Shown here: positions 4,989 through 29,030 of the stretch, piece by piece
Position numbering within the stretch: position 1 is the stretch's first letter
Layout of the letters: each line of letters opens with the position of its first letter
Origin: Lyngbya sp. HA4199-MV5
Lineage (GTDB): Bacteria; Cyanobacteriota; Cyanobacteriia; Leptolyngbyales; Leptolyngbyaceae
Direction: 5' to 3'
Assembly (NCBI GenBank): GCA_019359375.1
Contig: JAHHHL010000009.1
Location: 62,001 to 126,000 of the forward strand
Length of the DNA stretch: 64,000 nucleotides
Made by a program: the position numbers and the translations under genes
The notes under the pieces: model-generated
Seen by the model: only the letters and a program-made list of their open reading frames with translations
Told to the model about the DNA's origin: nothing
Database searches by the model: none

Positions 4989-5138
4989 AGACTTGATTGC
5001 TCAGTCTTTGACGTTAAGCCACCCGCCATTCAGGTTTGCGACTCGACCCTTCCAGCAGTCTAGAGTCTAACGTCCACAGTCCTAAAGTCTAGAAAACACT
5101 CCTTCCCAGTTATTGTGTCAGTTTGAGGAGCTATTTCA

Positions 5139-6416: not shown

Positions 6417-6428
6417 CGTTGACCAGCA

Positions 6429-7577: not shown

Positions 7578-7612
7578 AACTTTTTAACTTTAAGAAGGAA
7601 TCAAGGTTTCGG

Positions 7613-8146
7613 ATGATGAAAAACATAGGTCTGCTTGTAAGTCTCCCTTGTATGCTGGTAGCGCCTGCATTCTTTTTGCAACAAAACCCAGTTTTCGCTC
7701 AAACATGCAATTACTTCGCGGGAGCTGCGGTAACAGGGCAAAGTGTAAATGTAGATTTGTGTTCAATCAGCCCAGCCAGTCCTCGAAGCGTTGACTTTGT
7801 TTACTACTTAGGAAATGAGAAAGTTGTAAGTCAAGCTAACTGCGCTCAAGGAACTTGGATTTCATTTCCAGAGAGGCGGGTCAATCGTCCTCAATCCCAA
7901 GCTACACAGAGGATGCTTGAGGTTGTTTGTAGTTATCGAGTTTACAGCCCACGCCGCACTTCTAGAGTTGGAGCAGCCATTGTTTTCAATCCGCCATCGA
8001 ATGTGAGAGCTTCTCCGAATGGTGACATTCTTTGTTCAGTTAGAGAGCGTAGCACAATCAATATCTACGGTTCTGTTGGTTCTTGGTATTACACCAATGT
8101 ATGCGGCAAGATGGGAGTAATACACTCTGGTCAAATCAGATTTTAG
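7613..8146 (+). CDS. Secreted protein with a C-terminal SH3-like region
   Basis: MMKNIGLLVSLPCMLVAPAFFLQQNPVFAQ signal peptide; ...NVRASPNGDILCSVRERSTINIYGSVGSWYYTNVCGKMGVIHSGQIRF resembles bacterial SH3. Confidence 0.65.
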   Translation: MMKNIGLLVSLPCMLVAPAFFLQQNPVFAQTCNYFAGAAVTGQSVNVDLCSISPASPRSVDFVYYLGNEKVVSQANCAQGTWISFPERRVNRPQSQATQRMLEVVCSYRVYSPRRTSRVGAAIVFNPPSNVRASPNGDILCSVRERSTINIYGSVGSWYYTNVCGKMGVIHSGQIRF

Positions 8147-8431
8147 GAAGTGTAAACTTCAATCTAGACTAAATTCAGAGCAGAAAGTAGGGTGAGCAAT
8201 GCCCATCCACTATGTTCATTCGATATGACGTAACCGTTCATAGGAGTGGCGTAGCGATCGATCCCCAGCGCACACAAGCAATCCTTCTAAACTGTGAGGT
8301 TACCTGTGATCGTCGGACGATCGCCCTAGTAATTGCTCGTTCACTACTGTAATCTACGAAGCTAAGTTCAATCATTGAGCCAGGTGAACTCGCTATAATG
8401 CTTCCAGAAAGCTAACCTGCTGCAAACTCCT

Positions 8432-8644
8432 ATGACCTCCCAACAGCTTGAAGAACGATCGCATCAACTCGAAGCGCGTGTCGAAACGTTAGAGACCGAG
8501 CTAGCACAAGTGAGGCAAATGCTGTCTGAGCTTCTTCAGCAAAAGAATCCTTGGTGGCTAAAAGTTGCGGGTAGCTTTGAAGACGATTCCACATTCGATG
8601 AAGCCGTTCACCTTGGACAAGAATGGCGTAAGTCTGCTGGGTAG
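8432..8644 (+). CDS. Small coiled-coil protein, probable antitoxin partner of the PIN protein
   Basis: MTSQQLEERSHQLEARVETLETELAQVRQML... immediately upstream of a PIN-domain ORF. Confidence 0.65.
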   Translation: MTSQQLEERSHQLEARVETLETELAQVRQMLSELLQQKNPWWLKVAGSFEDDSTFDEAVHLGQEWRKSAG

Positions 8645-8661
8645 ATTGCGAATGCTCCACG

Positions 8662-9087
8662 ATGTACATTCTTGACACCGACCATCTCAGCCTTATCCAG
8701 CGCAACGGACAGGAGGGCAAGCGCATTCTGGCAAAGCTAACAGCCCTTGAAACGCTTGAAGTTGCGGTGACTGTGATTACTTACGAAGAACAAGTCAGAG
8801 GGCGACTTGGTGTGCTATCGAAAGCGAAAACGCTTGATGAACAAGTGCTTGCCTATCAAGGACTACAGCAACTTGTATCAAACTACCAGTCGATCGTTGT
8901 TGTTCCTTTTAGTCGTATAGCTGCTCTGGAGCATCAACGTTTACGAAAAGCTTATCCTCGTCTTGGCAATATGGATCTAAAAATTGCGGCGATCGCGTTG
9001 ACCAAGAACGCAATTTTACTCACTCGTAATGAGTCGGATTTTGGGCAAATTGTAGAACTGCAAACAGAAGACTGGACAACTGCGTAA
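8662..9087 (+). CDS. VapC-type PIN-domain toxin
   Basis: MYILDTDHLSLIQRN ... GNMDLKIAAIALTKNAILLTRNESDF: PIN acidic residues. Confidence 0.85.
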   Translation: MYILDTDHLSLIQRNGQEGKRILAKLTALETLEVAVTVITYEEQVRGRLGVLSKAKTLDEQVLAYQGLQQLVSNYQSIVVVPFSRIAALEHQRLRKAYPRLGNMDLKIAAIALTKNAILLTRNESDFGQIVELQTEDWTTA

Positions 9088-9219
9088 AAGTAGAAATTGC
9101 TTAGTGCATAGATTCACTTGTACGATCGCCATATCTGCTCAGTCGTTAGCACATCAAAGTGAGACTGTACGGACGATCGCATTACCTTTCTTGCCCAAAC
9201 GGAGGATAATGCTTGGCTA

Positions 9220-10110
9220 CTACGATCGCCTTACGTTCATACAGCACCAGTCCTGGCGTTTCCACAGGGCGGCGACGACCCAACCGTTTTCTTCAAGGGT
9301 GTCGGCGACGGGTTTTGCCTGATCGAGCAGAATGCCGCTGAAGATGCCCCAGGTGTGGGAATGGGCGATCGCGGTCATGTGGGGAATCAAGTCGATGATA
9401 ACTTCAGCGAGAATATTGCAGACAATGCCATCCACAGGGGCAGCGATGAGTTCAGCCACGCGATCGACGCTGCCTTGCTCTACGACCAGTTGTTCATCCT
9501 TAATCTCATTGAGGTCACGGCTTTCGCGGGCGGCTTTGACTGCGAGGGGGTCAGTATCTACGGCATAGGCTTTTTTAGCACCCAGCAGAATGGCACCGAT
9601 CGATAAAATACCTGAGCCACAGCCAATATCGGCAATGATAAGATCCGCCGCTTCGCTACCCAGGCGCATTTCAAGCGATTCGAGGCAGAGCTGCGTGGTG
9701 GCATGATCGCCTGTTCCAAAGGCAACCCCTGGCTCAAGCTGGAGAATGATGCGATCGGTGTTTTCGGGTGGCGGCAACCAGGCAGGATTGATGAGAAAGC
9801 GATCGCCAATTTCCTGCGGCTGCCAGTAGGCTTTCCAGGTCGTCGCCCAATCTTCTTCATCGATCAAATCCCACTGCACGGCGGGAATGGGCATGCCCAC
9901 ACACAGCGCATCTTGCCGTAGCGCCAGTGCCAGTGCTGCCAGATCCAACACATGCGCCTGCTCCTGTGGCAAGTAAGCCCCGATCAACGAGGCATACCCT
10001 TTGACCTCACTGGACATTCCACGACAGCCAAACAGCTCCAACCGCCAGAAGATCGTTTCTTCCAGCGCGGCATCACAAAGAATCTGAATTTCCCACCAGC
10101 TACTTGCCAT
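9220..10110 (-). CDS. prmA: Ribosomal protein L11 methyltransferase
   Basis: [63 protein letters not shown]. Confidence 0.92.
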
Positions 10111-10385
10111 AAGAGCGTTCAGCGTTCAGCGCTTAGGATCGTGGATTTAATAAAACCAGATTCTTGCGTAGGATGCGTTAGCCAGCGTAACGCATCGCCT
10201 CGGGAACCTGCGATGCGTTACGGTTAGCGCCTTTAGCAGAGCCATGCCGTAGGCTTTACACATCCGACAAAAGCCGATCTTATTTAATCTCTCATTCCTT
10301 AGCTATCAGCGTTTCTTTGTCGGTTAATTGGGTCGTTTACACCGTAGAGTTAAGCGGCTGACGGCTGATTGCTGACAGCTAATAG

Positions 10386-11966
10386 CTATAACGTTACCGT
10401 ATAAGCATCCCGAATCCCTGGCACTTTCAAAATCTCCTCCAGGATGTTGTCAGGAAGGGGATCGTCAATGCTGAGTACCATGACCGCATCGCCGCGCACG
10501 ATTTTGCGCCCCACCTGCATACTGGCAATGTTGACGTTAAAGTCACCTAGCAGCGAGCCGATTTTGCCAATGATCCCCGGCATATCGCGGTGGAGAGTAA
10601 AGAGCATGTAACGGTTGGGCGGCACGTTGACCGGAAACTCGTCTACATTCGTGATGCGAATTTCGGAATCGCCCAGCAGTGCGCCAGTTACGGAATGTTC
10701 GCCCAGGGAGCCTTTGGCAGACAGGTGGAGCGATCCGGCATAATCTTTGATGGAGGCATCACGGGTTTCGATGACGCGAATGCCGCGTTCCTTGGCTTCC
10801 AGACTGGCGTTGACGTAGTTGACCCGTTCTTGCAGGGCATGAGAGAGCAACCCTTTGAGAGCTGCAACCACGATCGGCTGACTTTGATTGGTCGCCAGCT
10901 CGCCCTGGAGCCGCACAGTGAGAGATTCCACCCGTCCCCCCGCCAGTTGTGCGACCAGATTGCCCAACGTTTCAGCCAGTTGCAGATAGGGGCGCAGCTT
11001 CTCCAGCAAATCGGGCTGCAAGCCAGGGATGTTGACCGCCGATCGCGCAGGCAATCCCAAGAGGACATCCCGAATTTGCTCTGCCACGTCGATCGCCACA
11101 TTTGCCTGTGCCTCTTCAGTGGACGCGCCCAGGTGAGGAGTCATCACCATTTCTTTACCGAGCGATCGCAACGGCGATTCACCCAATGGCTCTTGCTCGT
11201 AGACATCCAGCGCTGCCCCAGCGATTTTGCCGCTCTTCAGTGCCTCTGCCAGTGCTGCCTCGTCGATAATGCCACCACGGGCACAGTTGATAATCCGCGC
11301 AGTGGGCTTCATGCGGGCGATCGCGGCTTCGTTGATCAAATGAGTGGTTTCTGCCGTTTTCGGAATATGCAGCGTAATGTAGTCTGCCTGTTGCAGCAGC
11401 ACATCCATCTCGACAATCCGGCACCCCAACTGCTCTGCCCGTTCGTGGGAAATGAAGGGATCGTATGCCAACAGCTTCATCCCCATCGCGCGGGCAACGG
11501 TTGCCACATGCGCTCCAATTTTGCCTAGCCCAACAATGCCCAGCGTTTTTTTGTAAACCTCAACGCCCGTGTAGTGCTTGCGATCCCACTTGCTGGCTTT
11601 CACCGCCTGGTTTGCATCGGGGATGTAGCGGGACATTGCCATCATCATGGCTAACGTATGCTCGGCAGCGGCGATCGTGTTGCCTTCGGGCGAATTTACA
11701 ACGACAATGCCTTTCCGGGTGGCTGCCAGCACATCGACGTTATCGACACCCACACCCGCACGACCAATAATTTTAAGTTGATTGCCTGCCTCAATGACTG
11801 CCTGTGTGACGCGAGTACCAGAGCGGATCATCAGCGCATCGTAAGCAGGAATGATTTTAATCAAGTCATCCGGCGACAAGTCCGTTTTTACGTCAACCTG
11901 CGCCACTTGAGAGAGGATATCGATCCCCACCTGGTCGATCGGATCAGAAACAAGAACTTTAGGCAT
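10386..11966 (-). CDS. serA: D-3-phosphoglycerate dehydrogenase
   Basis: [61 protein letters not shown]-terminal ACT domain ([16 protein letters not shown]). Confidence 0.95.
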
Positions 11967-12197
11967 AGCAACCAGTCAGGGTTAAACGCAGAGCGCTCTA
12001 GAACAACAGGGGTGTTTTAAGGTTCAGCCATCCCATACCGTCAAGCAGGAAGACGTAAAGGGTTCCCTTGCTCACTTAAGATGAAGATGGCTAACCAAAC
12101 AGACCATCTAGATTACGCCATTTTGCGTCGCGCGTTGGTTAAATCGCTTGGATTTTTTAATCTCTGTTCCTTTGTTATTCAGGTGTCTGTTATTCCC

Positions 12198-12719
12198 ATG
12201 AATTATCTTGTTGCCGTCTTGAGCGATCGCATTCAGGCAGAAGAAGCATACTCGGCGCTCGAACGTCAGGGTTTACCAATGACGAAGATTGCCATTTTGG
12301 GTAAGGGGTATAAAAGCGCCGATGAGTATGGCTTGCTCGACCCCAACCAGGAAGCGGGCAAGCAAGTGAAGCTCATGGCTGTATGGCTTGTACCCTTTGG
12401 CTTTGCGGCTGGCTATGTGTTTAACCTCATCACCAATCTCGATACCTTCGCTTGGGCGGGCGAGCTGGGTAGCCATATCATTGGCGGCGTGCTGGGAGCA
12501 GCATCGGGCGCTCTGGGCAGCATTTTTGTGGGAGGTGGCGTTGGGTTGGTAACGGGCAGTGGGGATGCACTTCCCTATCGGAATCGCCTCAACGCGGGAA
12601 AATATCTGGTTGTGGTGAAAGGGTCTGAAGCGCTGACTCGTCAGGCAACCACGATTCTGAGGCAGTTTGAGCCTGAGAACCTTCAGGGCTATGTGGATAC
12701 GTCGGAGGCTCAGGGATAA
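12198..12719 (+). CDS. Conserved cyanobacterial membrane protein with Gly-rich TM segment
   Basis: MNYLVAVLSDRIQAEEAYSALERQGLPMTKIAILGKGYKSADEYGLLDPN...GGVLGAASGALGSIFVGGGVGLVTG; start moved to internal Met. Confidence 0.7.
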   Translation: MNYLVAVLSDRIQAEEAYSALERQGLPMTKIAILGKGYKSADEYGLLDPNQEAGKQVKLMAVWLVPFGFAAGYVFNLITNLDTFAWAGELGSHIIGGVLGAASGALGSIFVGGGVGLVTGSGDALPYRNRLNAGKYLVVVKGSEALTRQATTILRQFEPENLQGYVDTSEAQG

Positions 12720-12765
12720 ACGCGGAGGCGCGGAGGGCGCGGAGAGGGGTGACTTAAAAATTAAA

Positions 12766-12805
12766 AGCTGCTGTTCGATCGGTTAAGCCAATCTAAACAG
12801 CAGCT
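12766..12805 (-). terminator. Rho-independent terminator-like hairpin 3' of the Hli gene
   Basis: Perfect 10-bp inverted repeat AGCTGCTGTT / AACAGCAGCT, followed on the minus strand by TTTAATTTTT. Confidence 0.6.
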
Positions 12806-12854
12806 AGAGAAGGGAGATATATTGCCTAAATCACTCGACGGGATGGGAGAAGCT

Positions 12855-13040
12855 TTACAGCAAACCCCAGAAATGCAGAACGCCTTGACCGGAATACAGT
12901 TCAAGCAGTAGCGCTGCCAGGAAGCCAATCATGGCAAGACGACCGTTCCACAACTCTGCCTGAGGCGTAAAGCCAAATTTCCAGGCGTTGCGATCGGTTT
13001 CAACGATAGGAGTGGTCACTTTTGGTGTGGCGTTAGTCAT
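12855..13040 (-). CDS. High-light-inducible / CAB-like single-helix protein
   Basis: [44 protein letters not shown]: ExxNxRxAMxGF-like chlorophyll-binding helix. Confidence 0.88.
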
Positions 13041-13635
13041 GGTTATTGCTCCAATTACTTCAAAACGGTAGAGGTTACGGATCAACGAACTAGCGCTATC
13101 AGAGGAAGTGGAAAACCACCGATGAAGCTTCGTTAAACTATGTAAACTAATATAACAAAAGATTTTGAAGATGACCAGGTAGCAGCGGAAGATCTTTTCA
13201 AAGGGGCAGAAGTGTGCATGGGGGAGAAGGGAGTGGGAAGCCGGGGAGGCAGGGGAAGCTGGGGAGGCAGGGGAAGCTGGGGGAGTAGCAAGGGGAGTCG
13301 GGAGTGGGGTCGGGATCAGGAAAGTCAGAACGATCTGCCACTAACGATTGCGTTCAGCGGATGCAAGTAACATCAAACTAAGCCCCGAAAGCTTTATCCA
13401 TTCCGTTGCAACGCACTTGTTATACAGTGCTTGCCACCGACGGTTAATCAAGCCATATTCCTTATTTCTCAAATATTTTAGATTGATACGATATGCCCAC
13501 GTAAACAGCATTATTATGGATAATTTCATTCTTCTCACACATGGCGACCCTATTAACCTGTTCAAAGACTTTGTAGTATCAGATAATGTGGCACAAATCA
13601 ACAGCCTACTTGATTCTTTTTAGCACTTCAGTGTA

Positions 13636-14262
13636 TTGATGCGCCCCCTTTCGGCAGACTTAGCTCTTGGGTGTCAAGAAAAACAATATGGTTATTTTGA
13701 AAGCACAGTTAGACCGCCTTTTAGTAGCTGGCACATACGTGCCTTGCCTACTGACAATACAGCTATCGAACCACTACCACGGGACACCCAATGCTCAGAG
13801 ACTCCTCAGTTGACTCCGGAAGTTTTAAGTAAATGGATATCTCAAGCACTTGATCAGGATTGTGGTTGCTTGTCAACAACACATAGGGTTGATTGGAAGT
13901 TCATCGAATTTCTATCTATTCAAGCAAAGCTACCAAATATAGAAACCTTCTCAAATCAAGATTCCCTTCGTGTTGGTTGGAAGAACAGTGAGTTCACAGT
14001 TCCGATCACAAGAGAGAATGATCAGCTATGGGTTTTTGGAACTATGTTCAGGTCATCCACTTATCCTGCTAAATCTCCCTTCTATGTAATTTTTAGTCAA
14101 GAGTGTGGAAGGATTACGTTGGATATACAAATCTACTGGTCACTCTGGACACATCCAAATTCTGCTGGATATCCAGTTATGTATGAGATAATTCAACAGC
14201 TTCTACAGCTTGGTTGGCAAGCATCTTACTTACCTACGCAATTCAAGGCGGATTTTCGCTAA
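13636..14262 (+). CDS. Hypothetical protein
   Basis: 208-aa open frame, no recognised motif. Confidence 0.4.
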   Translation: MMRPLSADLALGCQEKQYGYFESTVRPPFSSWHIRALPTDNTAIEPLPRDTQCSETPQLTPEVLSKWISQALDQDCGCLSTTHRVDWKFIEFLSIQAKLPNIETFSNQDSLRVGWKNSEFTVPITRENDQLWVFGTMFRSSTYPAKSPFYVIFSQECGRITLDIQIYWSLWTHPNSAGYPVMYEIIQQLLQLGWQASYLPTQFKADFR

Positions 14263-14337
14263 AACTTCCTTAAATCGAGCTGTATAACAACTTCTTCAAC
14301 TCAAAACTCAAAACTCATCCTGCCTTTCCCCGCCTTC

Positions 14338-15327
14338 TCACTTCCAACTGAACAGAAGCCAGATGCCGCCAAGGGCTAGGAGTACGCCGACGATCGCTCT
14401 CACGCTAACCTTTTCGTCGATCGCAAGCGCAATCGGGATAACGAACAAAGGACTGGTAGCGCTGAGGGATTGGGCAATGCCAGCAGCAGTGTATTTCAGC
14501 GAGACTTGCTGGAGCCAGATGGCGAGATAGGTACTGGCAAAGGCTGTTAAGGTAAGAATTGCCAGGAAACGGGGCGATTGCAGTGGTTTGAGGTCTTGAA
14601 TGGTACGTCGCTGGAATAGCAACCAGACCACCAGCACAAAACCTCCTGCCACTAATCGAAGCAACGCACTCCACAGCGGATCGATCGTGGTGTTTGCCAG
14701 TGCCGCTCTGGATAGTACCGCTCCACTTGCCTGCCCCAGTGCTGCCAGTAAGCCAAAGACTGTCCCTCGCCACAGATGCCGTTGGGGTTGCAGGGTTTCG
14801 TGGGTTCGTTCAACCACAACCCATGTGACACCCGCGATCGTCAACGCAATGCCAGCCCAGGCACCGATCGCCAGCCGTTCCTGTAAGAAAAGCAGCGCCA
14901 TCACAGCCGCTAACGGTGGTGCGATTGATTCCAGTACCAAAGCTCGGCGTGCGCCTAAACGGTTGAGCGCTGTAAAGTAAGCCGTGTCGCCAAACCCAAT
15001 GCCAACAACGCCGCTGAGGGCAAGTAGACCAATCGCGCTCAGGCTGACTTGAGGCAGTAGTTCGCCTTTGAGCAGCAGCGTGAGGATGAGGAGTGCGATC
15101 GCAATCAATCCCTTCGCCAAATTCAACACCAGTGGCGAAAGCTGTCGCCCAATGCCGATGTAGATGACAGATGCGATCGCCCAGATCAACGCTGCACTGA
15201 GCGCTGCCAGTTCGCCACGAAAATCGCTAAACAATGATAGAGCCACGATGTTTTGCTTGAGTCCAACGCTTACAAACGTTCCTCGTACGCCAATGGATGA
15301 CAAACGCTTCTCATAGCGGCTCTTCAT
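14338..15327 (-). CDS. EamA/DMT-family transporter
   Basis: Ten-TM duplicated EamA pattern (ALIWAIASVIYIGIGRQ..., LGARRALVLESIAPPLAAVMALLFLQERL). Confidence 0.85.
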   Translation of the reverse strand: MKSRYEKRLSSIGVRGTFVSVGLKQNIVALSLFSDFRGELAALSAALIWAIASVIYIGIGRQLSPLVLNLAKGLIAIALLILTLLLKGELLPQVSLSAIGLLALSGVVGIGFGDTAYFTALNRLGARRALVLESIAPPLAAVMALLFLQERLAIGAWAGIALTIAGVTWVVVERTHETLQPQRHLWRGTVFGLLAALGQASGAVLSRAALANTTIDPLWSALLRLVAGGFVLVVWLLFQRRTIQDLKPLQSPRFLAILTLTAFASTYLAIWLQQVSLKYTAAGIAQSLSATSPLFVIPIALAIDEKVSVRAIVGVLLALGGIWLLFSWK

Positions 15328-15766
15328 ACATCAGAGAGTCGGACGGCAGCATTCCTAATGCCTGATAAACCGCTTGTGCTTTGACGTTGCCTTGATACAC
15401 ATAGAGACGCAACCCACACACGTTCGATCGATCTGCTTGAGTTTTCAGAGATTGATAGAGCGTGCGAAAAATGCCCTGCTGACGGTGGCTTGGTTCTACA
15501 TAAACATCCTGTAGCCACCAAAACCAGGCGTTTCTAAAATCGCTCCATTCAAACGTGACTAACACGGCTGCAACAACTCTATTTTCAATTTCAGCAACGG
15601 TATAAAAGCCTCGATCGCCATCATTGAGAACGGCTTGAACACCTTTCTGAAGCGTTGTGGCATCCAGTTCTTTCCCTCTCGCCTCTTTGACTAAAGACAA
15701 ATTAAATCGGACGATCGTTGCCAGGTCTTCAGACTTTGCTCTACGAATCACTGGAGCGATCGTCAT
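15311..15766 (-). CDS. GNAT-family N-acetyltransferase
   Basis: IRRAKSEDLATIVRFNLSL ... LQDVYVEPSHRQQGIFRTLYQSL ... LRLYVYQGNVKAQAVYQALGM. Confidence 0.88.
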   Translation of the reverse strand: MTIAPVIRRAKSEDLATIVRFNLSLVKEARGKELDATTLQKGVQAVLNDGDRGFYTVAEIENRVVAAVLVTFEWSDFRNAWFWWLQDVYVEPSHRQQGIFRTLYQSLKTQADRSNVCGLRLYVYQGNVKAQAVYQALGMLPSDSLMYEEPL

Positions 15767-17553: not shown

Positions 17554-18783
17554 TAAGTACAACTCGTCGCTGAAGGGGTCGGAAATCGTTAGGATCAGCA
17601 TAAAGCTGTGGATGACCTATGCGTGGACGTACTTCTCAGATCAAGATCAGTCTAAGCGGGGAATAACGTGAAAGCTTGGAAAGTTTGCTGCGCCGACAGA
17701 AGACCCCTGTTGGGCTGGCAAAACGTGCGCGTGCAATATTGCTCTTAGCCGAGAGAGAGAGGTTTAACCAAACAGCCGAACGGGTGGGCTTGGGAGAACG
17801 CCATCTGCGGAAGTGGGCAAGACGCTTTCTGGCGCAGGGAGTCGAGGGTTTACAAGATCGACCACGACCGGGCAGAGTCCCGGTTTCCCCCCCCTCAAGT
17901 CGCCTTGTACCTGGTTAAAATTGCGTGTGAACTGCCCGATACTCAAGGTCGGTCTCTGTCTCAATGGGATTGCACCAAGTTAGCCCGACAGGTGGTAGTA
18001 GCAGGGTTGGTGGGCAGCATCTCTGCGTCTACGGTCCGCCGGATTTTGAACCACCATCAGCTGAAACCTTGGCGACAGCATCTGTGGTTATCCCCCAAAG
18101 TGCCACGCGACAAAGCCTTTGTCAAATCCATTCGCGAAATGAGCCGCCTCTCTATCCGCAAGCTCAAAGCGCACGAAAGGGTGCTTTGCCTGGATGAGAA
18201 AACCGCTTTGCAGCCCCGTCCACGCAAAGCGGCAACCTTACCATCGAGACCGCAGTCCATCATGAAAGTTGAGCATGAGTATGAACGCCAAGGGGCACTC
18301 AATCTGCTTGCAGCCTTTGATAGTCGTACAGGTAAGGTGTGGGGGCAAACCTATGAACGCAAGCGACAAGTCGAGTTAATCGCCTTTTTGGAGTATCTGG
18401 ACAAACAGATTCCCGTAACCATCACCCAGATTCATGTTGTGCTCGACCATCTCAAGAGGCACAAAGGCAGAAAGGTGCAAGCTTGGTTAGCCCAACATCC
18501 CCGGTTGGTCTTTCGTTTTCCACCCGTGCATTGCTCTTGGATGAATCAAGTAGAACAGTGGTTGAGTATCCTGCAACGCAAGCGCTTGAAAATTGCCAAC
18601 TTTAAGGACAAGCAAGCTTTAGCAGAACGTCTGCAAGCCTTCATCGCCGAGTGGAATGCTCATGCCCACCCCTTGCATTGGACAACCAAGTCAGTCGCAA
18701 AAATCATGGCAAAATGTGATCCTCAACCAACGCCTGCCAAAGCCGCTTGATTGCCGTATCCCTCTGACGGTGGCCTGTACTTA
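17554..18783 (+). mobile_element. IS630-family insertion sequence, apparently flanked by TA
   Basis: Inverted termini CTAAGTACA (17553-17561) and TGTACTTAG (18776-18784), each with TA; encloses an IS630-type HTH + DDE transposase. Confidence 0.7.
17619..18750 (+). pseudogene. IS630-family transposase, disrupted
   Basis: Reading from ATG 17619: MRGRTSQIKISLSGE*RESLESLLRRQKTPVGLAKRARAILLLAE...; in-frame TAA at 17664-17666 and frame change at the C8 run 17887-17894; DDE half (LCLDEKT, HVVLDHLKRHKG, PVHCSWMNQVEQW) open in the next frame. Confidence 0.85.
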
Positions 18784-19713: not shown

Positions 19714-22700
19714 TCAAATATTATCGCAAATTTGACGTTCATCTTGGGTCAACTTAAGATTATTTTTTAGATAGAACTTTATCCAGTTGCAGCTCAATAT
19801 TATTGAATCAGCCAGATTTGAGTGGCTATTAATAGAGTCTAAATTCCATATTCTTATTGTTTTGTCATCACTTGCAGAAATTATCAAATTGTTTTTTCGA
19901 TTGAAGCTTACGCTATTTACTGAATTAGAATGCCCACTAATTTTTGTAATAAGTTTTCCATCCATGACTTTCCAAACGTTAATTCCTTGCTCTCCTCCAG
20001 AAGCCAGCATTTGACCATTTGAGCTAAAGCTGATGCTGTAAACTTTGCTTTTGTGCTGAAAAGTTCTTAATTCTTTACCATCAAAAATCCTCCACAACTT
20101 GACAGATGTATCCCAACTAGCAGAAGCGAGTATTTGACCATCAGGACTGAAGCTCACATCCTGAACTCGGTCTTTATGATAAAATATTTTTAGCAATTTG
20201 CCATCAGCAACTCTCCATAATCTAACTGTCTTGTCTGCGCTAGCGGAAGCAATCATCTGACCATCAGGACTAAAACTTACTCCGTACACTCGCTTAGACT
20301 GCTGAAAGCTTTTTAGAAGTTTTCCATCTGCTACACGCCAAAGCTTTACATGCTTATCCCAATCTCCTGTAGCAATTATTTTATTGTCGGAACTAAATTT
20401 AACATTCAAGATAGCAGTATCCTCTCTAAGAGGACGTGGATTTATTTCTTTGATCAGGTTCCCTTTAGTATCCCAAAGCCTGATAGTTTCACCTAAGCCA
20501 ACAGAAGCTATTGTTCTGCTGTCTGAACTAAATGTCACTCCTTGAACACCCTTTCCAGGATTATTACTACTTGATAATAGCTTGCCATCCTGATTCCAAA
20601 TTTTAATAGTGTCATCGAAACTGCCAGATGCAATAATTTTTCCGTCAGGACTAAAACTAGCATCGTTTACTTCTCTAGTGTGTCCCTCTAGACGATTGAC
20701 CTCTTGAGTTTCAGTAATGACTCTTTGAAGTTCACCTGGTGTTTCGTGCTGTCTTTCTCGCAATTGCTTTAAGACTTTTACAGTTGCTATAAGTGCTTTA
20801 AGTTGGTCATTTGTGCCAGCGACTGCCTCAGAATAAGCTATTAGTGCCTTAATTTCTTTTGCTTGTGCGTTTCGTTTTTCAGTTTGAGCCGATAGTGCCG
20901 ATAGGGTTGTTATGGCTGCCAGCACAACAAGTAATGCTCCTGCTACTGTGGCAATCCGAGTTTTTTGTTTCTCAGCTTTTACTCTTGCCACAGATTCATT
21001 AGATCTTTCTGCTTCCGCTTCGGCTCTTGCTTCGGCTTCAATTTTCTCCCCAATCTCTGCTAGCTCTCTTCCCTCTGCTTCTTCTCTCAACCTCCGCTCC
21101 TGCTCCAGTTGCGCCTGAAACTGTCGATCGCGCCTTCTCCTACTCTCCTCAATAAACTCCTGATCAACAGGCATCAGGCGGGGTTGTTTCTTTTCCATCC
21201 ATTCATCGATCGCGGCTAATCTGCCAGCATCGAGGAGGTAGTTTTCGGAGCGATCGTGGTCTTGCCATTCGTGGCGGTAGATTTCCAGGCGTTGTTGGAG
21301 GCGAATGTCGTCCCGGTTTTCGTCAATCCAGCCTTGAATAAGTTTGGATTCGGATAAGAGTGCCTCATGTGCTACTTCAACCGTTTTGTCATCGGCTACG
21401 AGGAGGCGTTGATAGATGAGGCTACCGATGATGCGATTGAGTTGTTCTTGTGAGGTGGCGATCGCGCGTAGGCGTTCCCAGTTTGCGCGTCGGCGAGTGA
21501 CTTCGCCGGCATCCCCAATCTGGACTAATTCGCTAATCAGGTCTCGGACAAAGGTTTGGTCGGTAGGAGAAAGGCTGGTGTAAAACTGGTCTGCCCAACG
21601 CTGTAAAGCACCTTTTACGCCGTCGATCGCGTTGTAGCTTTGAAGCGTCAGCAGTCGCGATCTGCCATCCGTTGAAATGCAATTGTCCCAAAGCTGCATT
21701 AGAGCATATTGCAACAGCGGCATTGCGCCCGGTTGGTTCACCACATCATTTACAATGCGCGATACCAGTCCTGGTTCAAAGCTTACTTCATGCAGTGCCG
21801 CTGGACAAATAATCGAATCCTCCAGTTCTGCCACCAGTTTGGCTTCAGTGAGAGGCGTGACCATATAGGTTGTCGGGGCGGTACTGTTGATCAGGTCAGC
21901 AGATTCTTGAAACTTGGCGCACCGATCGAGAAAATCGCCGCGCATGGCAACAATGATGCGAGTTTGCCTGGTAGGGTTGTTGGTTTCGTCGTTCAACCGC
22001 TTGATAAAGGTGCGCTGCTCTTCCTCATTGGGGCAGAGGGTAAACAGTTCCTCAAATTGATCGACAAACAGCACAACAGGCTTGTCGTTTGAGTGCAGTT
22101 GTTCCAGCGTCTGGGTTAGAACCTGGAGGGGATACTGTCCCGGTGTGATGATTTTGATCTGCCAGTCGTGACTACCGGGAAGACGATCGCCCTCCAGTTC
22201 AGGCAGCAGTCCCGCTTTGACCAGTGACGATTTGCCGCAGCCAGAGGGACCAATCACGGATAGGAAACGGTTTTTATCCAGGCGATCGAGCAATGCCCTT
22301 ACTGCCTGTCCGCGTCCAAAAAAGTAGTCTGCCTGATACTGCTCAAACGCTTTCAACCCCATATAAGGATTGGCAGGGTTGAATGTAGATTCCGGGGTTG
22401 GCACAGGTTGCCGTTGCTTGTAGCGCACCAGCGTAATGGAGCGTCCCCAGCCCATCCGCAGCGGTTCCTGGCGCGAGTTTTGCAGTTCATCCCCAATCAC
22501 GTCGAAGAGGCGATCGCCACTAATCCAACCGCTTCCCGACGTAACGCTAGCGGGAGAGAGTCCTTTCAGCACGGCAGCCGTGAGTAAGCTGTGGTGCTCA
22601 CCCTCGTAAGCCTTGCTAGAGCCGCGACAGGCGGTAATCAGGTAATAGTCACGCTCATAGCCAAAGGTAAAATCTCGCCGTACCATGTCGCTTTCGAGAA

Positions 22701-23181
22701 AGGCACCAGAGTTGCAGCAGTCTAAAATCACGACCAGACTGCTGAATTTGTGGTGATTGATGAGCTTGTTTAGATCAGCCAGAGAAATGCCGTTTTTTTC
22801 AGCGATGACTTGCCCTGCGGCATTCAATTCGACCTGGCAATCCGACGGCGCGAGATACCCTTCTGACGTGCCAGAGAGTGGCTGCACTTTGCTAAACCCG
22901 TGCCCGCTGTAATAAAGCAGCACTTCACTACCAGCCGCATCTTGTAGAAATTTTTGGAGTTCACGCACCAGAGTTTCGTTAGTCAGCGGTTTGCGAATGA
23001 CGTTGCCCAGATCTTTTTGTCCTGCTTCGCGCCGGAAGGGCAGCCGCATCACTTGATTAAATTCGCCGTATTGGTCGAGAATGTCTGCGATCGCGTTGGC
23101 ATTCTGAACGGGCGATTCTAAACTCTGGAAGGACGCGGTTGTATACTCAGCGATGCCAATAATCAGGGCGTAACGGGCCAT
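19714..23181 (-). CDS. Caspase-like peptidase (C14) + STAND-type P-loop NTPase + TM segment + WD40 repeats
   Basis: His/Cys dyad motifs LLYYSGHGF and VVILDCCNSGAF; Walker A SVIGPSGCGKSSLVKAG; Walker B-like PVVLFVDQFEELF; TM TRIATVAGALLVVLAAITTLSAL; at least six WD40 units (VNDASFSPDGKIIASGSFDDTIKIWN etc.). Confidence 0.92.
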   Translation of the reverse strand: MARYALIIGIAEYTTASFQSLESPVQNANAIADILDQYGEFNQVMRLPFRREAGQKDLGNVIRKPLTNETLVRELQKFLQDAAGSEVLLYYSGHGFSKVQPLSGTSEGYLAPSDCQVELNAAGQVIAEKNGISLADLNKLINHHKFSSLVVILDCCNSGAFLESDMVRRDFTFGYERDYYLITACRGSSKAYEGEHHSLLTAAVLKGLSPASVTSGSGWISGDRLFDVIGDELQNSRQEPLRMGWGRSITLVRYKQRQPVPTPESTFNPANPYMGLKAFEQYQADYFFGRGQAVRALLDRLDKNRFLSVIGPSGCGKSSLVKAGLLPELEGDRLPGSHDWQIKIITPGQYPLQVLTQTLEQLHSNDKPVVLFVDQFEELFTLCPNEEEQRTFIKRLNDETNNPTRQTRIIVAMRGDFLDRCAKFQESADLINSTAPTTYMVTPLTEAKLVAELEDSIICPAALHEVSFEPGLVSRIVNDVVNQPGAMPLLQYALMQLWDNCISTDGRSRLLTLQSYNAIDGVKGALQRWADQFYTSLSPTDQTFVRDLISELVQIGDAGEVTRRRANWERLRAIATSQEQLNRIIGSLIYQRLLVADDKTVEVAHEALLSESKLIQGWIDENRDDIRLQQRLEIYRHEWQDHDRSENYLLDAGRLAAIDEWMEKKQPRLMPVDQEFIEESRRRRDRQFQAQLEQERRLREEAEGRELAEIGEKIEAEARAEAEAERSNESVARVKAEKQKTRIATVAGALLVVLAAITTLSALSAQTEKRNAQAKEIKALIAYSEAVAGTNDQLKALIATVKVLKQLRERQHETPGELQRVITETQEVNRLEGHTREVNDASFSPDGKIIASGSFDDTIKIWNQDGKLLSSSNNPGKGVQGVTFSSDSRTIASVGLGETIRLWDTKGNLIKEINPRPLREDTAILNVKFSSDNKIIATGDWDKHVKLWRVADGKLLKSFQQSKRVYGVSFSPDGQMIASASADKTVRLWRVADGKLLKIFYHKDRVQDVSFSPDGQILASASWDTSVKLWRIFDGKELRTFQHKSKVYSISFSSNGQMLASGGEQGINVWKVMDGKLITKISGHSNSVNSVSFNRKNNLIISASDDKTIRIWNLDSINSHSNLADSIILSCNWIKFYLKNNLKLTQDERQICDNI

Positions 23182-23306: not shown

Positions 23307-23672
23307 ATGTCTGATGTAAAGCGTTTCCAATTTGAGGAGAACGGTGAGGCATTCGAGATTTTTATTGAAGCAACATCATCGACGGACATTCCGGCGCGGG
23401 CGATCGATGATGACGATCCTGGCGGCATGGGCGTTGTCAATGATATCAGTGTCAGAATGCAACAAGCACAGAGCATGATTCGAGGCTACACGCTCTATGC
23501 ACTCAATGCCTTTAAGAATTTGGGTGATGCCAATGTGGAAGAAATCAGCCTGAAGTTTGGCTTGAAAATTGGCGGTAAAACGGGTATTCCTTACATCACA
23601 GAAGGGTCTGCCGATTGCAATCTCGAAGTTTCAGTGAAATGCTCCTTTCCGAGCAAAAATAATTCGCTTTGA
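23307..23672 (+). CDS. Trypco1 (trypsin-co-occurring domain 1 / CU044_2847-type) protein
   Basis: VKRFQFEENGEAFEIFIEA ... FKNLGDANVEEISLKFGLKIGGKTGIPYITEGSADCNLEVSVKCSF fits the Trypco1 pattern (LKFGLK...G......A.L.V...). Confidence 0.75.
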   Translation: MSDVKRFQFEENGEAFEIFIEATSSTDIPARAIDDDDPGGMGVVNDISVRMQQAQSMIRGYTLYALNAFKNLGDANVEEISLKFGLKIGGKTGIPYITEGSADCNLEVSVKCSFPSKNNSL

Positions 23673-23746: not shown

Positions 23747-24652
23747 TCATTTAACCGTTTGTGGCTGTGCGATCGAGAAGTTGGCAAAATCAATGGTAAC
23801 TTCTTTGGGCGTTGCCCAGGATGGATCATTGCCACCAAAGAATGTGGAGAAGAAAATGCCTTCAATCTTGAGTGTTTTGGTGGTACGAAATTGAAGGTTG
23901 TTTTGATCCAAGACTTTCTTTCCATCCAGCCACACTTGCAGGCGACCATTGTTCTTTTGAGGATCATTCAGGTCAACCTGTTGTTCTAAACGATGCCAGG
24001 TGCCGGGGGTAAAGACCCAGTTGCCACGCCCGATCGAGGTGCCATATTTAGCGCTGGTGGGTAAATAGGCATACACTTCTCCCTGTCCCCCTTTGCGCCA
24101 CATGAATCGGGTCGAAAAGCCGTTTGTGCCGTCGGGCTTTTTGCCACCGCTGGTTTCTGTGCCGCCAAAAAAGCCGGGTAGTTTGCCCCCTTTCACAAAG
24201 TTGAAATTTTTAGAGAAGCGCACGTCATAGCTGAGGCGTAAAGAGTCCTGGGGTGCAAACGGCAACGTTGTGTAAAATTGCGCTCCACCAAGCGGAGCAC
24301 CTGTTTTACGCTTCACGGCTGGACTGGCAGATCCGGCTGGATAACGCACTCTAAGAGCCGTTGAAAATTGAGGGTCTGCAATGGTGGCTGTATTCTGCCA
24401 ACCCCAATCACCTTGCTTGCGGATGTGCCATTGCGATCGCCAATTCGAGTCCGAAAAATTCCCTGCCCACAGACGTTTTCCAGCAGCCGAGCGTTCGCTT
24501 ATCTTTGATGGATCACTAGACTCCGATCGCACCAGTGGATCAACAGCCTCAGGAGCGGTCATGGAACTTAGCTGACGACAACTACTAACAATGTGAGTAG
24601 AACTTAGCAGCGCCAAGAGCCATAGACAAGCATGCACAAGGCTAGATTTCAT
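23747..24652 (-). CDS. Secreted polysaccharide lyase-like (alginate-lyase / PL14-like jelly-roll) protein
   Basis: Signal/lipoprotein-like N-terminus (LLALLSSTHIVSSC); YDVRFSKNFNFVKGGKLPGFFGG ... FSTRFMWRKGGQGEVYAYLP ... WHRLEQQVDLN ... GIFFSTFFGGNDPSWATPK. Confidence 0.75.
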   Translation of the reverse strand: MKSSLVHACLWLLALLSSTHIVSSCRQLSSMTAPEAVDPLVRSESSDPSKISERSAAGKRLWAGNFSDSNWRSQWHIRKQGDWGWQNTATIADPQFSTALRVRYPAGSASPAVKRKTGAPLGGAQFYTTLPFAPQDSLRLSYDVRFSKNFNFVKGGKLPGFFGGTETSGGKKPDGTNGFSTRFMWRKGGQGEVYAYLPTSAKYGTSIGRGNWVFTPGTWHRLEQQVDLNDPQKNNGRLQVWLDGKKVLDQNNLQFRTTKTLKIEGIFFSTFFGGNDPSWATPKEVTIDFANFSIAQPQTVK

Positions 24653-24833
24653 GGCTGATGCAAGGGATAGGGGTGCAAAAGAGCTTGAATTTGAACGTTG
24701 CGTCTCCTGCTCAGTAGCTGTGTTGACTCATTCGGTTACTCAAAAGAGGTGGCGCGTGACGCTGAAGTTTTTCTTTAATGGCGAAGCCCATACAGCACCC
24801 TACGCAGCTAATGTTTTGCATCATTACAAGTGG

Positions 24834-27008
24834 CTACTTTGCGCTGCGATCGAGTTCGCTACCAACGGCATCATTCATCACAATTTTACTGTGGTCAACC
24901 TCATCTTCTGCCGTGACGTATTGCGTGACCACATGCTGCGATCGCGTCAGCACAAACGGATAGCGAATGCCATGTTCTAAATGCAGGTTGCTAACCGTTG
25001 CTTGAGTCACATCATCTAAAATCAAACCATTGCTGGGTTGTTTCGCCAGGTCTGGTTTGGACGGGCTATAGCGCAATGTAAAGCCACTAATCTGTACGTC
25101 TTGAACGGGTTTTTGTTCTGGGTTTGCTGTTGTCTGGACATCCGCTACCAGCTCTGGCTGACCCGCCCTCAGCGCAGACACCATCAGCATAGCCGTATCA
25201 GCCGTAGCGTTAAAGTGAGCTTGCAGAATGGTTCGATTTACACCCTGCCCTTTGAGACGGAGATGACTGCGATCGAGGCTAAGCGGCTCAAACAAATCCA
25301 GTTCACCAATGGGAAGATTGATTTGAATGGTTTTGTCGAGGGGTTGGCGATCGATTAATGCCTGGAGAACAGCGGCATCATCGTTGCCATCACTGGGCAC
25401 AATACCGTGGTCAATGGCATCAATCTCTTGCACAACGGCTTGTTGGGCGGCAGTGAATTTTAGGTGTAACCCCTCTAAATCCCACAAAGGATTAAGGATG
25501 CCATTCAACCACAGCAGAAAGATGGCAAAACTAAACACCTGACTCGCCAGCAGAAAGCGAGAAATTCCCAGTTTCGCAAGGCGTTCTCTGCCCGTTCCTT
25601 CAGCCGAAAGACTCTGATTGTCTCGATTTGCCCATCGTTGTTTTGCCAGGTTCATCTGTGTCCAGATTTTGACCAATGATGAACTCCATTGCGTCACCAG
25701 CAAAATGGGTAAATGAATAGGTTTTGGATCAGCCGCTCTACCCTGAAAAAGCAGCAGCAGCATAAACGAGCGGCTAAACAAAATCCACGACGCAATAATG
25801 CCCGCTGCAATGAAATGACCTTGAAGGAGAGACAGGAGTAAACAGCTAGGGCTAATAAGCGATGTCCAAATACTAATGCGCTGATCGAGCAAGCCATACC
25901 AGAGGTAGTAACCCGTTACGTTGGGACCAAGCGCAAGGGCACGACTGTTGTTGCGGAGCATGTTGCCATACCACCGTCGCATATTGTCATAGGCACGATC
26001 GACCGCTGACCCCGAAAGCGTCTCAATAGAATAAACCAACGCATCGGGGACGTAAAGCATGTCGTAACCACGACGCAGCAGCCAAAACCAGGTACTTTTA
26101 TCATCACCAGACAGAAACTTAAAGCGCCCCCACAGCCAATCGTCCAGGCTATCGTTCTCTAACTGCTCACAGAAGGATGGTTGCAGCACGGCTTCTGACC
26201 GAAACAGTGAAAAGCGTCCGGTTAAACACATCACTTTCCCAGAAAGCGAATCGGCACACATTTGCTGGTGTCGTTGAGCAAACCGCATCTGAAACCATTC
26301 CGAAAACAGGTAAGAATCTTTCACGACAGGCAGTTCGTCGGTGGTAAGTGCTCCCAGGCGAGGAAACAACCGAAAGAAGGGCAAGCATTGACGCAGCACA
26401 CCAGGCGCTAATTCCGAATCACCATCCATGAGGGCAATGACAGTATCCGCAGGAAGATTGTGGCGAGCTAACGCGCGTAAGCCATCTGCCATCGCTTGGC
26501 GCTTGCCATCGTGTTGCACCATTTGAATCAGATGGATCGATCGCAACTCTGGATCTTCAGACTCCAACACCTGACGAATAAACGCGTTTTCTTCATCACT
26601 ACTGCTGTTTGTTAGTAGAACAATCGGCTGAGCCAGCGTTTTGGCTTCTTGCACGATCGCTCGAAAGACACGCTCGGTAATCCAGGGCTTCTCTTTATAC
26701 GTTGGCACCAGCAAGCATACGAGCGGAAGTTGCTCTACTGCAATGGCATCAGCGCGTCGCCGCCAGCGTGGAAACGTCCAATTTAAATAAAGGCGAGAGC
26801 GAATCCCTCTCAGTAAAAACAGGCTCCAGCGCCAGGTTCCGACAATACCAAGGCTAATGAGTGCAAAGACATCCCACACGGCAATGTGCTTTGAACTGTG
26901 AGCAAAATACAACAAAGCAAAGCCAAAAGCTGTAATGCTCAAACACGCAAACCAATTCAGTTGAGACGTTAGCGTTCTTTGAGGGGCAGAAGCACTGGCG
27001 ATGGGCAT
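24834..27008 (-). CDS. GT2-family processive glycosyltransferase, Alg8/mannuronan-synthase-like, with a C-terminal pectate-lyase-like beta-helix region
   Basis: LVPTYKEKPWITERVFRAI, IALMDGDSELAPG, DDKSTWFWLLRRGYDMLYVPDALVYSIE, NMRRWYGNMLRNNSRALALGP; C-terminus VPSDGNDDAAVLQALID...INLPIGELDLFEPLSLDRSHLRLKGQGVNRTILQ. Confidence 0.8.
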   Translation of the reverse strand: MPIASASAPQRTLTSQLNWFACLSITAFGFALLYFAHSSKHIAVWDVFALISLGIVGTWRWSLFLLRGIRSRLYLNWTFPRWRRRADAIAVEQLPLVCLLVPTYKEKPWITERVFRAIVQEAKTLAQPIVLLTNSSSDEENAFIRQVLESEDPELRSIHLIQMVQHDGKRQAMADGLRALARHNLPADTVIALMDGDSELAPGVLRQCLPFFRLFPRLGALTTDELPVVKDSYLFSEWFQMRFAQRHQQMCADSLSGKVMCLTGRFSLFRSEAVLQPSFCEQLENDSLDDWLWGRFKFLSGDDKSTWFWLLRRGYDMLYVPDALVYSIETLSGSAVDRAYDNMRRWYGNMLRNNSRALALGPNVTGYYLWYGLLDQRISIWTSLISPSCLLLSLLQGHFIAAGIIASWILFSRSFMLLLLFQGRAADPKPIHLPILLVTQWSSSLVKIWTQMNLAKQRWANRDNQSLSAEGTGRERLAKLGISRFLLASQVFSFAIFLLWLNGILNPLWDLEGLHLKFTAAQQAVVQEIDAIDHGIVPSDGNDDAAVLQALIDRQPLDKTIQINLPIGELDLFEPLSLDRSHLRLKGQGVNRTILQAHFNATADTAMLMVSALRAGQPELVADVQTTANPEQKPVQDVQISGFTLRYSPSKPDLAKQPSNGLILDDVTQATVSNLHLEHGIRYPFVLTRSQHVVTQYVTAEDEVDHSKIVMNDAVGSELDRSAK

Positions 27009-27115
27009 AGAACGTCACTCTTGCAATGAAAACGGTAAATCAATGCTCAACCAGGCACGATCGCTCGATCGACAGGCTGAGAACAGGCACCCAATGAACC
27101 TCGATCGCACCCTCT

Positions 27116-28387
27116 TTAGCGTGTGCCAAAGGTGATGCTTGCCGACTGACCAACCCCACAAAAGCGATGAGACTGCGCTTGCTGTTGGGATGGTGGAATT
27201 TTAACCGTGACCCTTACCAGCGGTTGATCGCTCAGGTAAGAAGGGGTTGCTGGCGTAATCGCCTGAGTTTGTTGCTTGATCGTTTCAATATTGCTGACCG
27301 ATTCAATGAGATCTACGTCTCCCGTCAAGGTTTTTGGATCACCCAACAATTGCACCCGCACGGGTTGCTGACGATCGATGCGGTTTGCCTGTTCTACACT
27401 CACCAGCATTTCAACCCAGAGCGCGTTGCAATCCAGCATGGTCAATAAAGTACCGGGACGATTTACCTGCTCACCCTGCTCTTGCTCGGTGCGATAAATC
27501 ACCCCACCAAACGGAGCCGTGATAGTCATATCTTTGCGAGCCGTATAAACAGCTTGAGCTTGAGCAAGGAGACTTTTCTTCGTAGCCAGTTGCGCTCCTA
27601 ATGTTTTGATCTGCGTTAATTGAGCTTGCATCGCCTGTGTCAAGCTGACCCGCTGATTCAACAAACGATCGGATGCTTTGAGGGCAGTCCCCGCTTTCAA
27701 GGCGGTGTGAGCTGTGCGAGCAGAATCTAAATCAGCCTGTGCCTGTCTAATTTCGGCTTCGCTTGACTGCCAAATTGCTTTTAATTGATCAACTTTTTGT
27801 TGAGTGATTGCACCTTCAGACACCAGTTGGCGATTACGTTGATAATCTAACCGTGCAGACTGAGCTTTTGCTTTTGCTTCATCTACCGCGGCTTGATAGC
27901 GACGCACATCATTGCCTGCCAGTTCAATATTGGCACCCTGAATCGATTGATCCTGAGTCTCCAAACCGCTTAGTTGCTGTTGCAGCAGAGCCAGTGCTTG
28001 CTGACTCGCCGCTAGCTGGGCAACCATCGCATTGATCTCACCTTGAAGTTGTAAAACTTGCTGACCTTCTTGAGGAGTGGGAGCAATACGAGCCAGCACT
28101 TGCCCTTGCTTAACCACCACTCCTGGCTGGGCGTAGAACTCTTTAATGGTGCCGTCGATCGGCGCTTGAAGCCGCACTGACCGAGCATTAATCAAACCGT
28201 TATCAATGGTCAAATGCGTCAAGCGATACCCAATCGAAGAAAGCCCAAACGCTACTGCTGTAGCACCTAAAGAGACCAATGCCAGCGTCAAAAACAACCG
28301 ACGTTTTTGAGACGGTCTTGGGACAACATCAAGGGGCACCCCGATCGTGCGGTCAGAATGAGATGGCTTAGCGGGAATTTCTAGCAT
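27116..28387 (-). CDS. HlyD/Alg44-like membrane-fusion (biotinyl-lipoyl-like) protein
   Basis: Single TM; SVRLQAPIDGTIKEFYAQPGVVVKQGQVLARI, long coiled coil, ITAPFGGVIYRTEQEQGEQVNRPGTLLTML. Confidence 0.88.
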   Translation of the reverse strand: MLEIPAKPSHSDRTIGVPLDVVPRPSQKRRLFLTLALVSLGATAVAFGLSSIGYRLTHLTIDNGLINARSVRLQAPIDGTIKEFYAQPGVVVKQGQVLARIAPTPQEGQQVLQLQGEINAMVAQLAASQQALALLQQQLSGLETQDQSIQGANIELAGNDVRRYQAAVDEAKAKAQSARLDYQRNRQLVSEGAITQQKVDQLKAIWQSSEAEIRQAQADLDSARTAHTALKAGTALKASDRLLNQRVSLTQAMQAQLTQIKTLGAQLATKKSLLAQAQAVYTARKDMTITAPFGGVIYRTEQEQGEQVNRPGTLLTMLDCNALWVEMLVSVEQANRIDRQQPVRVQLLGDPKTLTGDVDLIESVSNIETIKQQTQAITPATPSYLSDQPLVRVTVKIPPSQQQAQSHRFCGVGQSASITFGTR

Positions 28388-28899: not shown

Positions 28900-29030
28900 C
28901 TAGGGCGTGTCATCAATTAGCTCCGAAACCTTGCAATATCAGCAGTGTCACGCCCGTCTCAACACACCAGGCTAGGGGCTGGAACCCTTGCTGCAAGCAA
29001 TGTGTAGTCGTAATTGATGACAGCCCCTAG
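28900..29030 (-). repeat. 131-bp MITE-like element, copy A (inverted orientation)
   Basis: CTAGGGCGTGTCATCAATTA...TAATTGATGACAGCCCCTAG. Confidence 0.85.

What the first reader, a model, noticed from the sequence alone, without database searches (positions are those of the whole stretch)
23747..28387. Compact alginate-like exopolysaccharide cluster (fusion protein, polymerase, lyase)
Seen: three consecutive minus-strand genes encode an HlyD-type periplasmic adaptor, a GT2 processive polymerase with Alg8-like features (NMRRWYGNMLRNNSRAL) and a secreted polysaccharide lyase-like protein. Established: Pseudomonas alginate synthesis needs Alg8 (polymerase), Alg44 (PilZ plus fusion-protein region) and AlgL (lyase). 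Inference: this is a reduced uronan or other EPS synthase system. I see no PilZ-like region in the adaptor, so regulation may differ from the c-di-GMP-controlled Alg44.
Basis: partly seen in the sequence, partly recalled or inferred. Interest (0 to 1): 0.72.

Follow-up and report, generated by a model that had tools for sequence, protein, structure and literature searches.

The report
Cyanobacterial polyuronate synthesis module, likely glucuronan
Three neighbouring cyanobacterial genes look like a compact machine that builds, exports and trims an acidic sugar chain; it resembles the machine that makes alginate, but the genome lacks the enzyme that makes alginate's building block, so the chain is more likely made of glucuronic acid, a polymer for which no biosynthetic genes had been reported as of 2023.

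Summary
On the minus strand lie an HlyD-type adaptor (27116-28387), a processive GT2 synthase (24834-27008) and a PL14 lyase with a lipobox (23747-24652). The trio recurs in a clade spread over several cyanobacterial families; GT2 is in 6 of 386 sampled genomes. The GT2 belongs to the family found in alginate operons (GMD, ManC, AlgG-like, AlgI-like, AlgX), but its fold is nearest hyaluronan synthase, and it carries a C-terminal truncated beta-helix resembling C5-epimerases. The complete genome has one UDP-glucose dehydrogenase and no GDP-mannose dehydrogenase (GMD). None was found in 18 other genomes of this clade checked. A sister cyanobacterial clade (3 loci) has GMD beside the GT2, so alginate is plausible there, not here. 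Halomonads pair the same GT2 and PL14 with UDP-glucose dehydrogenase and also lack GMD. These two GMD-less groups share five GT2 residues, all in one 11-residue stretch at the GKR motif. Best reading: synthase-dependent polyuronate, most likely polyglucuronate, made without PilZ control. In some relatives the adaptor carries an EAL-family or receiver domain where Alg44 has PilZ. Against: a blind test of one diagnostic residue fitted only 2 of 7 genomes, and no enzyme was assayed.

The parts
27116..28387 (-). HlyD-type periplasmic adaptor, 423 aa, one N-terminal TM near residues 31-49, only ~30 cytoplasmic residues, no PilZ/EAL/REC domain
   Evidence: Pfam HlyD_3 1.5e-18, HlyD_D23 3.5e-14; hydrophobicity scan
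24834..27008 (-). Processive membrane GT2 synthase, 724 aa, with C-terminal tail predicted periplasmic
   Evidence: Pfam; AlphaFold mean pLDDT 81, Foldseek best hyaluronan synthase 3.6e-15, BcsA 1.6e-10; tree
25962..26720 (-). GT2 catalytic domain (residues 97-349): DGD 195-197, GDD 301-303, RW 345-346
   Evidence: Pfam Glyco_tranf_2_3; invariant columns of A1
26490..26522 (-). Segment residues 163-173 (MVQHDGKRQAM): the only place where GMD-less cyanobacterial and UGDH-linked halomonad GT2s agree against both GMD-linked groups
24837..25436 (-). C-terminal GT2 tail (residues 525-724): truncated right-handed beta-helix, PF12708-like, fold resembling C5-epimerase/lyase domains; probably non-catalytic
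   Evidence: AF2 pLDDT 86, pTM 0.83; Foldseek AlgE4 A-module 8.7e-5, alginate epimerase/lyase 8jaz 2.1e-4; sub-threshold PF12708 in relatives
23747..24652 (-). PL14 polysaccharide lyase, 301 aa, predicted lipoprotein
   Evidence: Pfam PF21294 1.4e-66; PDB 5gmt 2.2e-35, vAL-1 3a0n 4.7e-6; conserved K157, R182, Y194, Y196
24578..24580 (-). Lipobox cysteine 25 (IVSSC); an equivalent Cys in most cyanobacterial copies
   Evidence: read from the alignment

Best explanation
A synthase-dependent polyuronate system. The GT2 polymerises a uronic acid from its nucleotide sugar in the cytoplasm and passes the chain through its own membrane channel. The HlyD protein holds the synthase to a TolC-like outer-membrane channel, the same plan as proposed for cyanobacterial cellulose (XcsAB-TolC). 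The PL14 lipoprotein degrades stray or overlong chains in the periplasm, as AlgL does for alginate. The beta-helix tail probably guides or binds the emerging chain. The only uronate donor pathway found is UDP-glucose dehydrogenase, so the product is most likely polyglucuronate (about 0.55), with little support for mannuronan/alginate. Shown by computation: gene content, linkage, family, predicted fold, absence of GMD. Inferred: product, export route, roles of tail and lyase.
For: Trio linkage across cyanobacterial families. Own genome: one UDPG/MGDP-dehydrogenase gene, best PDB match UDP-glucose DH 1.2e-121 versus GDP-mannose DH 3.6e-56. No GMD-type enzyme in the 18 other genomes of the GMD-less set. 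GMD at >=60% identity in only 2 of 386 cyanobacterial genomes, both directly beside this GT2. Halomonad/Thalassobaculum/L024 genomes with the same GT2 carry UGDH beside it; 29 of 30 listed dehydrogenase matches classified as UGDH and none as GMD. GMD-less cyanobacteria and UGDH-linked proteobacteria share M163, Q165, K166, D167, M173 against GMD-linked groups, including the nearer cyanobacterial GMD+ sister clade; five random columns of 475 fall within 11 with P about 1e-6. PL14 vAL-1 cleaves glucuronate chains (PMC8145301). One TolC-like gene in the genome. Foldseek nearest is hyaluronan synthase, a UDP-GlcA user.
Against: Genome-wide test on seven relatives without an adjacent dehydrogenase: the residue-173 rule fitted 2 of 7 (L030, L056); L025, L027 and L061 have M173 yet a GMD-like gene elsewhere, L041 and L069 have L173 but no GMD found. 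PL14 also occurs beside GMD in two cyanobacterial loci (L129, L130), so PL14 does not fix the sugar. UGDH is common and may serve other glycans. The two GMD-less groups give only about two independent evolutionary contrasts. K166/D167 lie in an indel region. Direct comparison with Pseudomonas Alg8 was not possible. No biochemistry.
Confidence: 0.55

Rival explanations
1. Alginate (polymannuronate) system: the GT2 uses GDP-mannuronate, as first proposed.
For: GT2 relatives sit in operons with GMD, ManC, AlgG-like, MBOAT and AlgX; a sister cyanobacterial clade has GMD beside the GT2, one member with a mannose-6-P isomerase cupin and a PL7 alginate lyase; nearest solved PL14 is an alginate lyase.
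Against: No GMD in the 100%-complete genome or in 18 other checked genomes of the clade; donor-site segment differs from all GMD-linked groups.
Confidence: 0.12
2. Mixed polymer containing glucuronic acid (hyaluronan-like single synthase using two UDP-sugars, or a heteropolysaccharide backbone).
For: Best structural neighbours are hyaluronan synthases; UGDH is present.
Against: Sequence family is the alginate-operon one; a PL14 lyase partner points to contiguous uronates.
Confidence: 0.18
3. Neutral glucan or amino-sugar polymer (cellulose-, chitin- or PNAG-like).
For: GT2 fold shared with BcsA and chitin synthase; weak NodC/PgaC matches far below cut-off; gene plan like XcsABC (PMC12430437).
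Against: Conserved polyuronate lyase rather than an endoglucanase; sequence family.
Confidence: 0.1
4. The three genes are not one system: the lyase is merely adjacent and serves degradation of foreign polyuronates.
For: PL14 is on the opposite strand in many relatives.
Against: Linkage kept across families and in proteobacteria; HlyD is directly upstream of GT2, or of GMD-GT2, in all cyanobacterial loci but L012, where the contig piece starts at the GT2.
Confidence: 0.05

Closest known systems
Alginate biosynthesis system of Pseudomonas/alphaproteobacteria (Alg8, Alg44, AlgL, AlgD)
   Same: GT2 of the family found in GMD/ManC/AlgG/AlgI/AlgX operons, HlyD-type co-protein, periplasmic lyase
   Different: No GMD, no AlgE; adaptor lacks PilZ; lyase is PL14, not the Pfam Alginate_lyase (AlgL) family; GT2 fused to a truncated beta-helix
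Cyanobacterial cellulose system XcsA-XcsB-XcsC (PMC12430437)
   Same: Three-gene plan: GT2 synthase, HlyD-like adaptor, polymer-cleaving enzyme, presumed TolC exit
   Different: XcsA has PilZ and makes cellulose, XcsC is an endoglucanase; here no PilZ and a polyuronate lyase
Halomonas/Salinicola UGDH-GT2-PilZ/HlyD-PL14-PF05426 lyase-Sel1 loci
   Same: GT2 (33-41% identity in the matched segment) and PL14 (about 40%), UGDH instead of GMD, shared donor-site residues
   Different: UGDH inside the locus, PilZ in the adaptor, extra PF05426 lyase and Sel1 (AlgK-like) genes
Glucuronan of Sinorhizobium meliloti M5N1CS and Peteryoungia rosettiformans
   Same: Predicted polymer
   Different: Their genes are unknown (PMC10180729); no evidence that they use this system

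Membership tests
Alginate biosynthesis system | Alg8-type GT2 synthase | tested here: met
   Same family as GT2s in GMD/ManC/AlgG/AlgI/AlgX operons; Pseudomonas Alg8 itself not compared
Alginate biosynthesis system | GDP-mannose 6-dehydrogenase (AlgD) in the genome | tested here: not met
   Only UGDH found
Alginate biosynthesis system | Alg44 with PilZ plus HlyD regions | tested here: not met
   HlyD only, ~30 cytoplasmic residues
Alginate biosynthesis system | AlgE outer-membrane porin | tested here: not met
   PF13372 absent from own genome
Alginate biosynthesis system | Periplasmic lyase acting on the product | not testable with these tools
   PL14 present with conserved K/S/R/Y/Y residues; activity unknown
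Polyglucuronate synthase (proposed) | UDP-GlcA supply without GDP-ManA supply | tested here: met
Polyglucuronate synthase (proposed) | GT2 donor specificity for UDP-GlcA | tested here: inconclusive
   Shared residues with UGDH-linked GT2s but blind test 2 of 7
Xcs cellulose system | GT2 with PilZ domain and endoglucanase partner | tested here: not met
   No PilZ; partner is PL14
PL14 family | PL14 Pfam model and conserved active-site residues | tested here: met
   PF21294 1.4e-66; alignments to 5gmt and 3a0n

The most novel reading that the evidence does not exclude
An unreported type of bacterial polyglucuronate synthase system, reached in cyanobacteria and in halomonads by separate changes of donor between GDP-mannuronate and UDP-glucuronate in alginate-type synthases. 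In the cyanobacterial version the adaptor's input domain is exchangeable (none, EAL-family or receiver, in place of PilZ), and the synthase carries a fused epimerase-like beta-helix.
Probability: 0.45. Interest if true: 0.75.

Novelty: new variant of a known kind. Interest (0 to 1): 0.6.

Why it matters
Genes for bacterial glucuronan were stated to be unknown in 2023 (PMC10180729), and no alginate-type synthase pathway had been confidently recognised in cyanobacteria (PMC4594306, PMC4971617). The locus gives a small, testable gene set for both. The paired cyanobacterial clades with and without GDP-mannose dehydrogenase form a natural comparison for how a processive GT2 chooses between GDP-mannuronate and UDP-glucuronate.

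Tried and rejected
(1) PL14 as marker of glucuronan: outside cyanobacteria PL14 goes with UGDH and GMD loci lack it, but L129 and L130 have both PL14 and GMD, so I dropped it as a discriminator. (2) Residue 173 as a general donor predictor: it holds for adjacent dehydrogenases, but only 2 of 7 in a blind genome-wide test; kept as weak evidence. (3) GT2 tail as an active C5-epimerase: predicted as a beta-helix, but 200 residues against ~375 in AlgE4 and variable in length (135-221 aa) among cyanobacteria; judged probably non-catalytic. (4) Profile search of the GT2 alignment against PDB sequences gave nothing. (5) Plasmid collection gave only distant rhizobial and roseobacter GT2s. (7) An NCBIfam scan of relatives failed on bad coordinates and was not repeated.

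Full report
Observation. The three ORFs are present as described. Pfam gives PL14 for 23747-24652 (1.4e-66), GT2 for 24834-27008 (2.9e-37) and HlyD for 27116-28387. The window is on contig C86 of a 6.9 Mb genome listed as 100% complete; its nearest relatives are Stenomitos and Leptolyngbya.

Conservation. Relatives of the GT2 were found in 19 cyanobacterial loci besides the window's own, usually with HlyD directly upstream and PL14 next to it, on either strand. In an even sample of 386 cyanobacterial genomes the GT2 occurs in six, and all six have HlyD and PL14 beside it. The linkage is therefore real but the system is rare.

Family of the synthase. The next relatives are in proteobacteria, Acidobacteria and Verrucomicrobia. 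In alphaproteobacteria the gene lies in an operon with GDP-mannose dehydrogenase (GMD); in the Roseibium locus L032 a ManC-type mannose-1-phosphate guanylyltransferase, an AlgG-like beta-helix protein, an MBOAT protein and AlgX are also there. By context these are alginate polymerases. In halomonads it lies with UDP-glucose dehydrogenase, a PilZ-HlyD protein, PL14, a PF05426 lyase and a Sel1 protein. NodC and PgaC models match far below their cut-offs. The AlphaFold model (pLDDT 81) is nearest hyaluronan synthase (3.6e-15), then BcsA (1.6e-10). It is thus a processive, membrane-channel GT2.

Which sugar. The own genome has one member of the UDP-glucose/GDP-mannose dehydrogenase family, next to a UDP-glucuronate decarboxylase-like gene (my reading of the sequence). 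Its best PDB match is UDP-glucose dehydrogenase, and its active-site motif is GWGGSCFPKD, not the RPGxxFGGSCLPKD of GMD. Nineteen further cyanobacterial genomes with the GT2 were searched; only the L018 genome has a GMD-type enzyme, and one (G016) showed no enzyme of the family over the cut-off. A GMD query over 386 cyanobacterial genomes gave two strong matches (60-66%), both immediately beside this GT2. The GMD+ cyanobacterial GT2s (L018, L129, L130) form a clade (99/92) sister to the GMD-less clade (90/81) containing the window. L018's enzyme matches GDP-mannose 6-dehydrogenase 1mfz at 1.4e-121. L129 also has a mannose-6-P isomerase cupin and a PL7-type (Alginate_lyase2) protein. Alginate is therefore plausible in the sister clade and implausible in the window.

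Site evidence. Columns in which GMD-less cyanobacteria agree with UGDH-linked halomonads, against both GMD-linked groups, number five, and all lie at residues 163-173 (M163, Q165, K166, D167, M173) around the GKR motif. Control patterns gave 2-4 columns each, scattered. Five random columns of 475 fall within 11 with probability about 1e-6. GMD is also absent from the dehydrogenase matches in 12 genomes with UGDH-linked GT2s. A blind extension to seven loci without an adjacent dehydrogenase fitted in only two, so this is supporting, not proving. Phylogenetic independence is low. That the GKR region lies at the donor site is from knowledge of GT2 structures, not tested here.

Lyase. PL14 aligns over its catalytic core with Aplysia alginate lyase 5gmt and chlorovirus vAL-1, with K157, R182, Y194 and Y196 invariant and S180 nearly so. 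That these positions correspond to known catalytic residues is from memory of the PL14 literature. vAL-1 cleaves glucuronate chains (PMC8145301). A lipobox is seen in most cyanobacterial copies. By analogy with AlgL, which clears periplasmic alginate (PMC8829089), its role is probably clearance.

Tail. Residues 525-724 of the GT2 form a confident beta-helix model (pLDDT 86). Foldseek matches include the mannuronan C5-epimerase AlgE4 (8.7e-5), an alginate epimerase/lyase (2.1e-4) and RbmB (2.1e-4), none at high TM-score for the whole target. Two alphaproteobacterial relatives (L024, L041) have a longer version of about 380 residues.

Adaptor and control. The window adaptor has only about 30 cytoplasmic residues. 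Relatives carry other N-terminal domains: EAL in L013, L127 and L130 (7.9e-47, 2.3e-48, 2.7e-54), a receiver domain in L018 (2e-27), PilZ outside cyanobacteria. The L013 EAL domain has DN in place of DD and D in place of the AEGVE glutamate and may be a receptor rather than an enzyme; L127 and L130 keep DD, and some later motifs were not found by my pattern search, so activity is open. One TolC-like gene exists in the genome and no AlgE. Export through TolC is an inference from the XcsAB model (PMC12430437), itself unproven.

Literature. Pereira et al. found no Alg44-type PilZ-HlyD protein and no confident AlgK or AlgE in cyanobacteria (PMC4594306). Glucuronan genes were unknown in 2023 (PMC10180729). 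One paper reports alginate from a Synechocystis isolate by chemistry (PMC10629183). I found no paper describing this trio in the open-access library searched; subscription papers could not be checked.

Verdict. A new variant of synthase-dependent polyuronate secretion: membership in the alginate system fails on GMD, PilZ and AlgE, while 'works like an alginate synthase system' stands. Product polyglucuronate at about 0.55.

Noticed in passing
window 28900-29030: 131-bp element with 20-nt terminal inverted repeats (90% complementary) and 42 matches in the genome, most at 94-99% identity: a MITE-like repeat upstream of the trio.
   Followed up: partly
window 19714-23181 and 23307-23672: Caspase-like/nSTAND1/WD40 protein of the EACC1-associated type beside a divergent Trypco1 (CU044_2847 family) protein, directly downstream of the lyase: a possible conflict or signalling system.
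   Followed up: no
L013 5763-7886; L127 5779-7896; L130 12069-14255; L018 489-2360: HlyD adaptors fused to an EAL domain (three) or a response-regulator receiver domain (one), in the position that PilZ has in Alg44.
   Followed up: partly
L129 (G087) 4318-15326; L130 (G387) 8454-15363; L018 489-6107: Candidate true alginate loci in cyanobacteria: GDP-mannose dehydrogenase directly beside the GT2; L129 also has a mannose-6-P isomerase cupin and a PL7-type lyase.
   Followed up: partly
L024 958-3705; L041 7673-10387: Alphaproteobacterial GT2s of 905-916 aa with a longer (~380 aa) beta-helix fused at the C-terminus: synthase-epimerase-like fusions.
   Followed up: partly
L085 5957-7369 (own genome C84): The organism's UDP-glucose dehydrogenase matches PF03721 in two pieces, suggesting an insertion of roughly 30 residues also seen in Stenomitos rutilans and ES-bin-22.
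   Followed up: no
window 17905-18750: DDE_3-type transposase, IS630-like.
   Followed up: no
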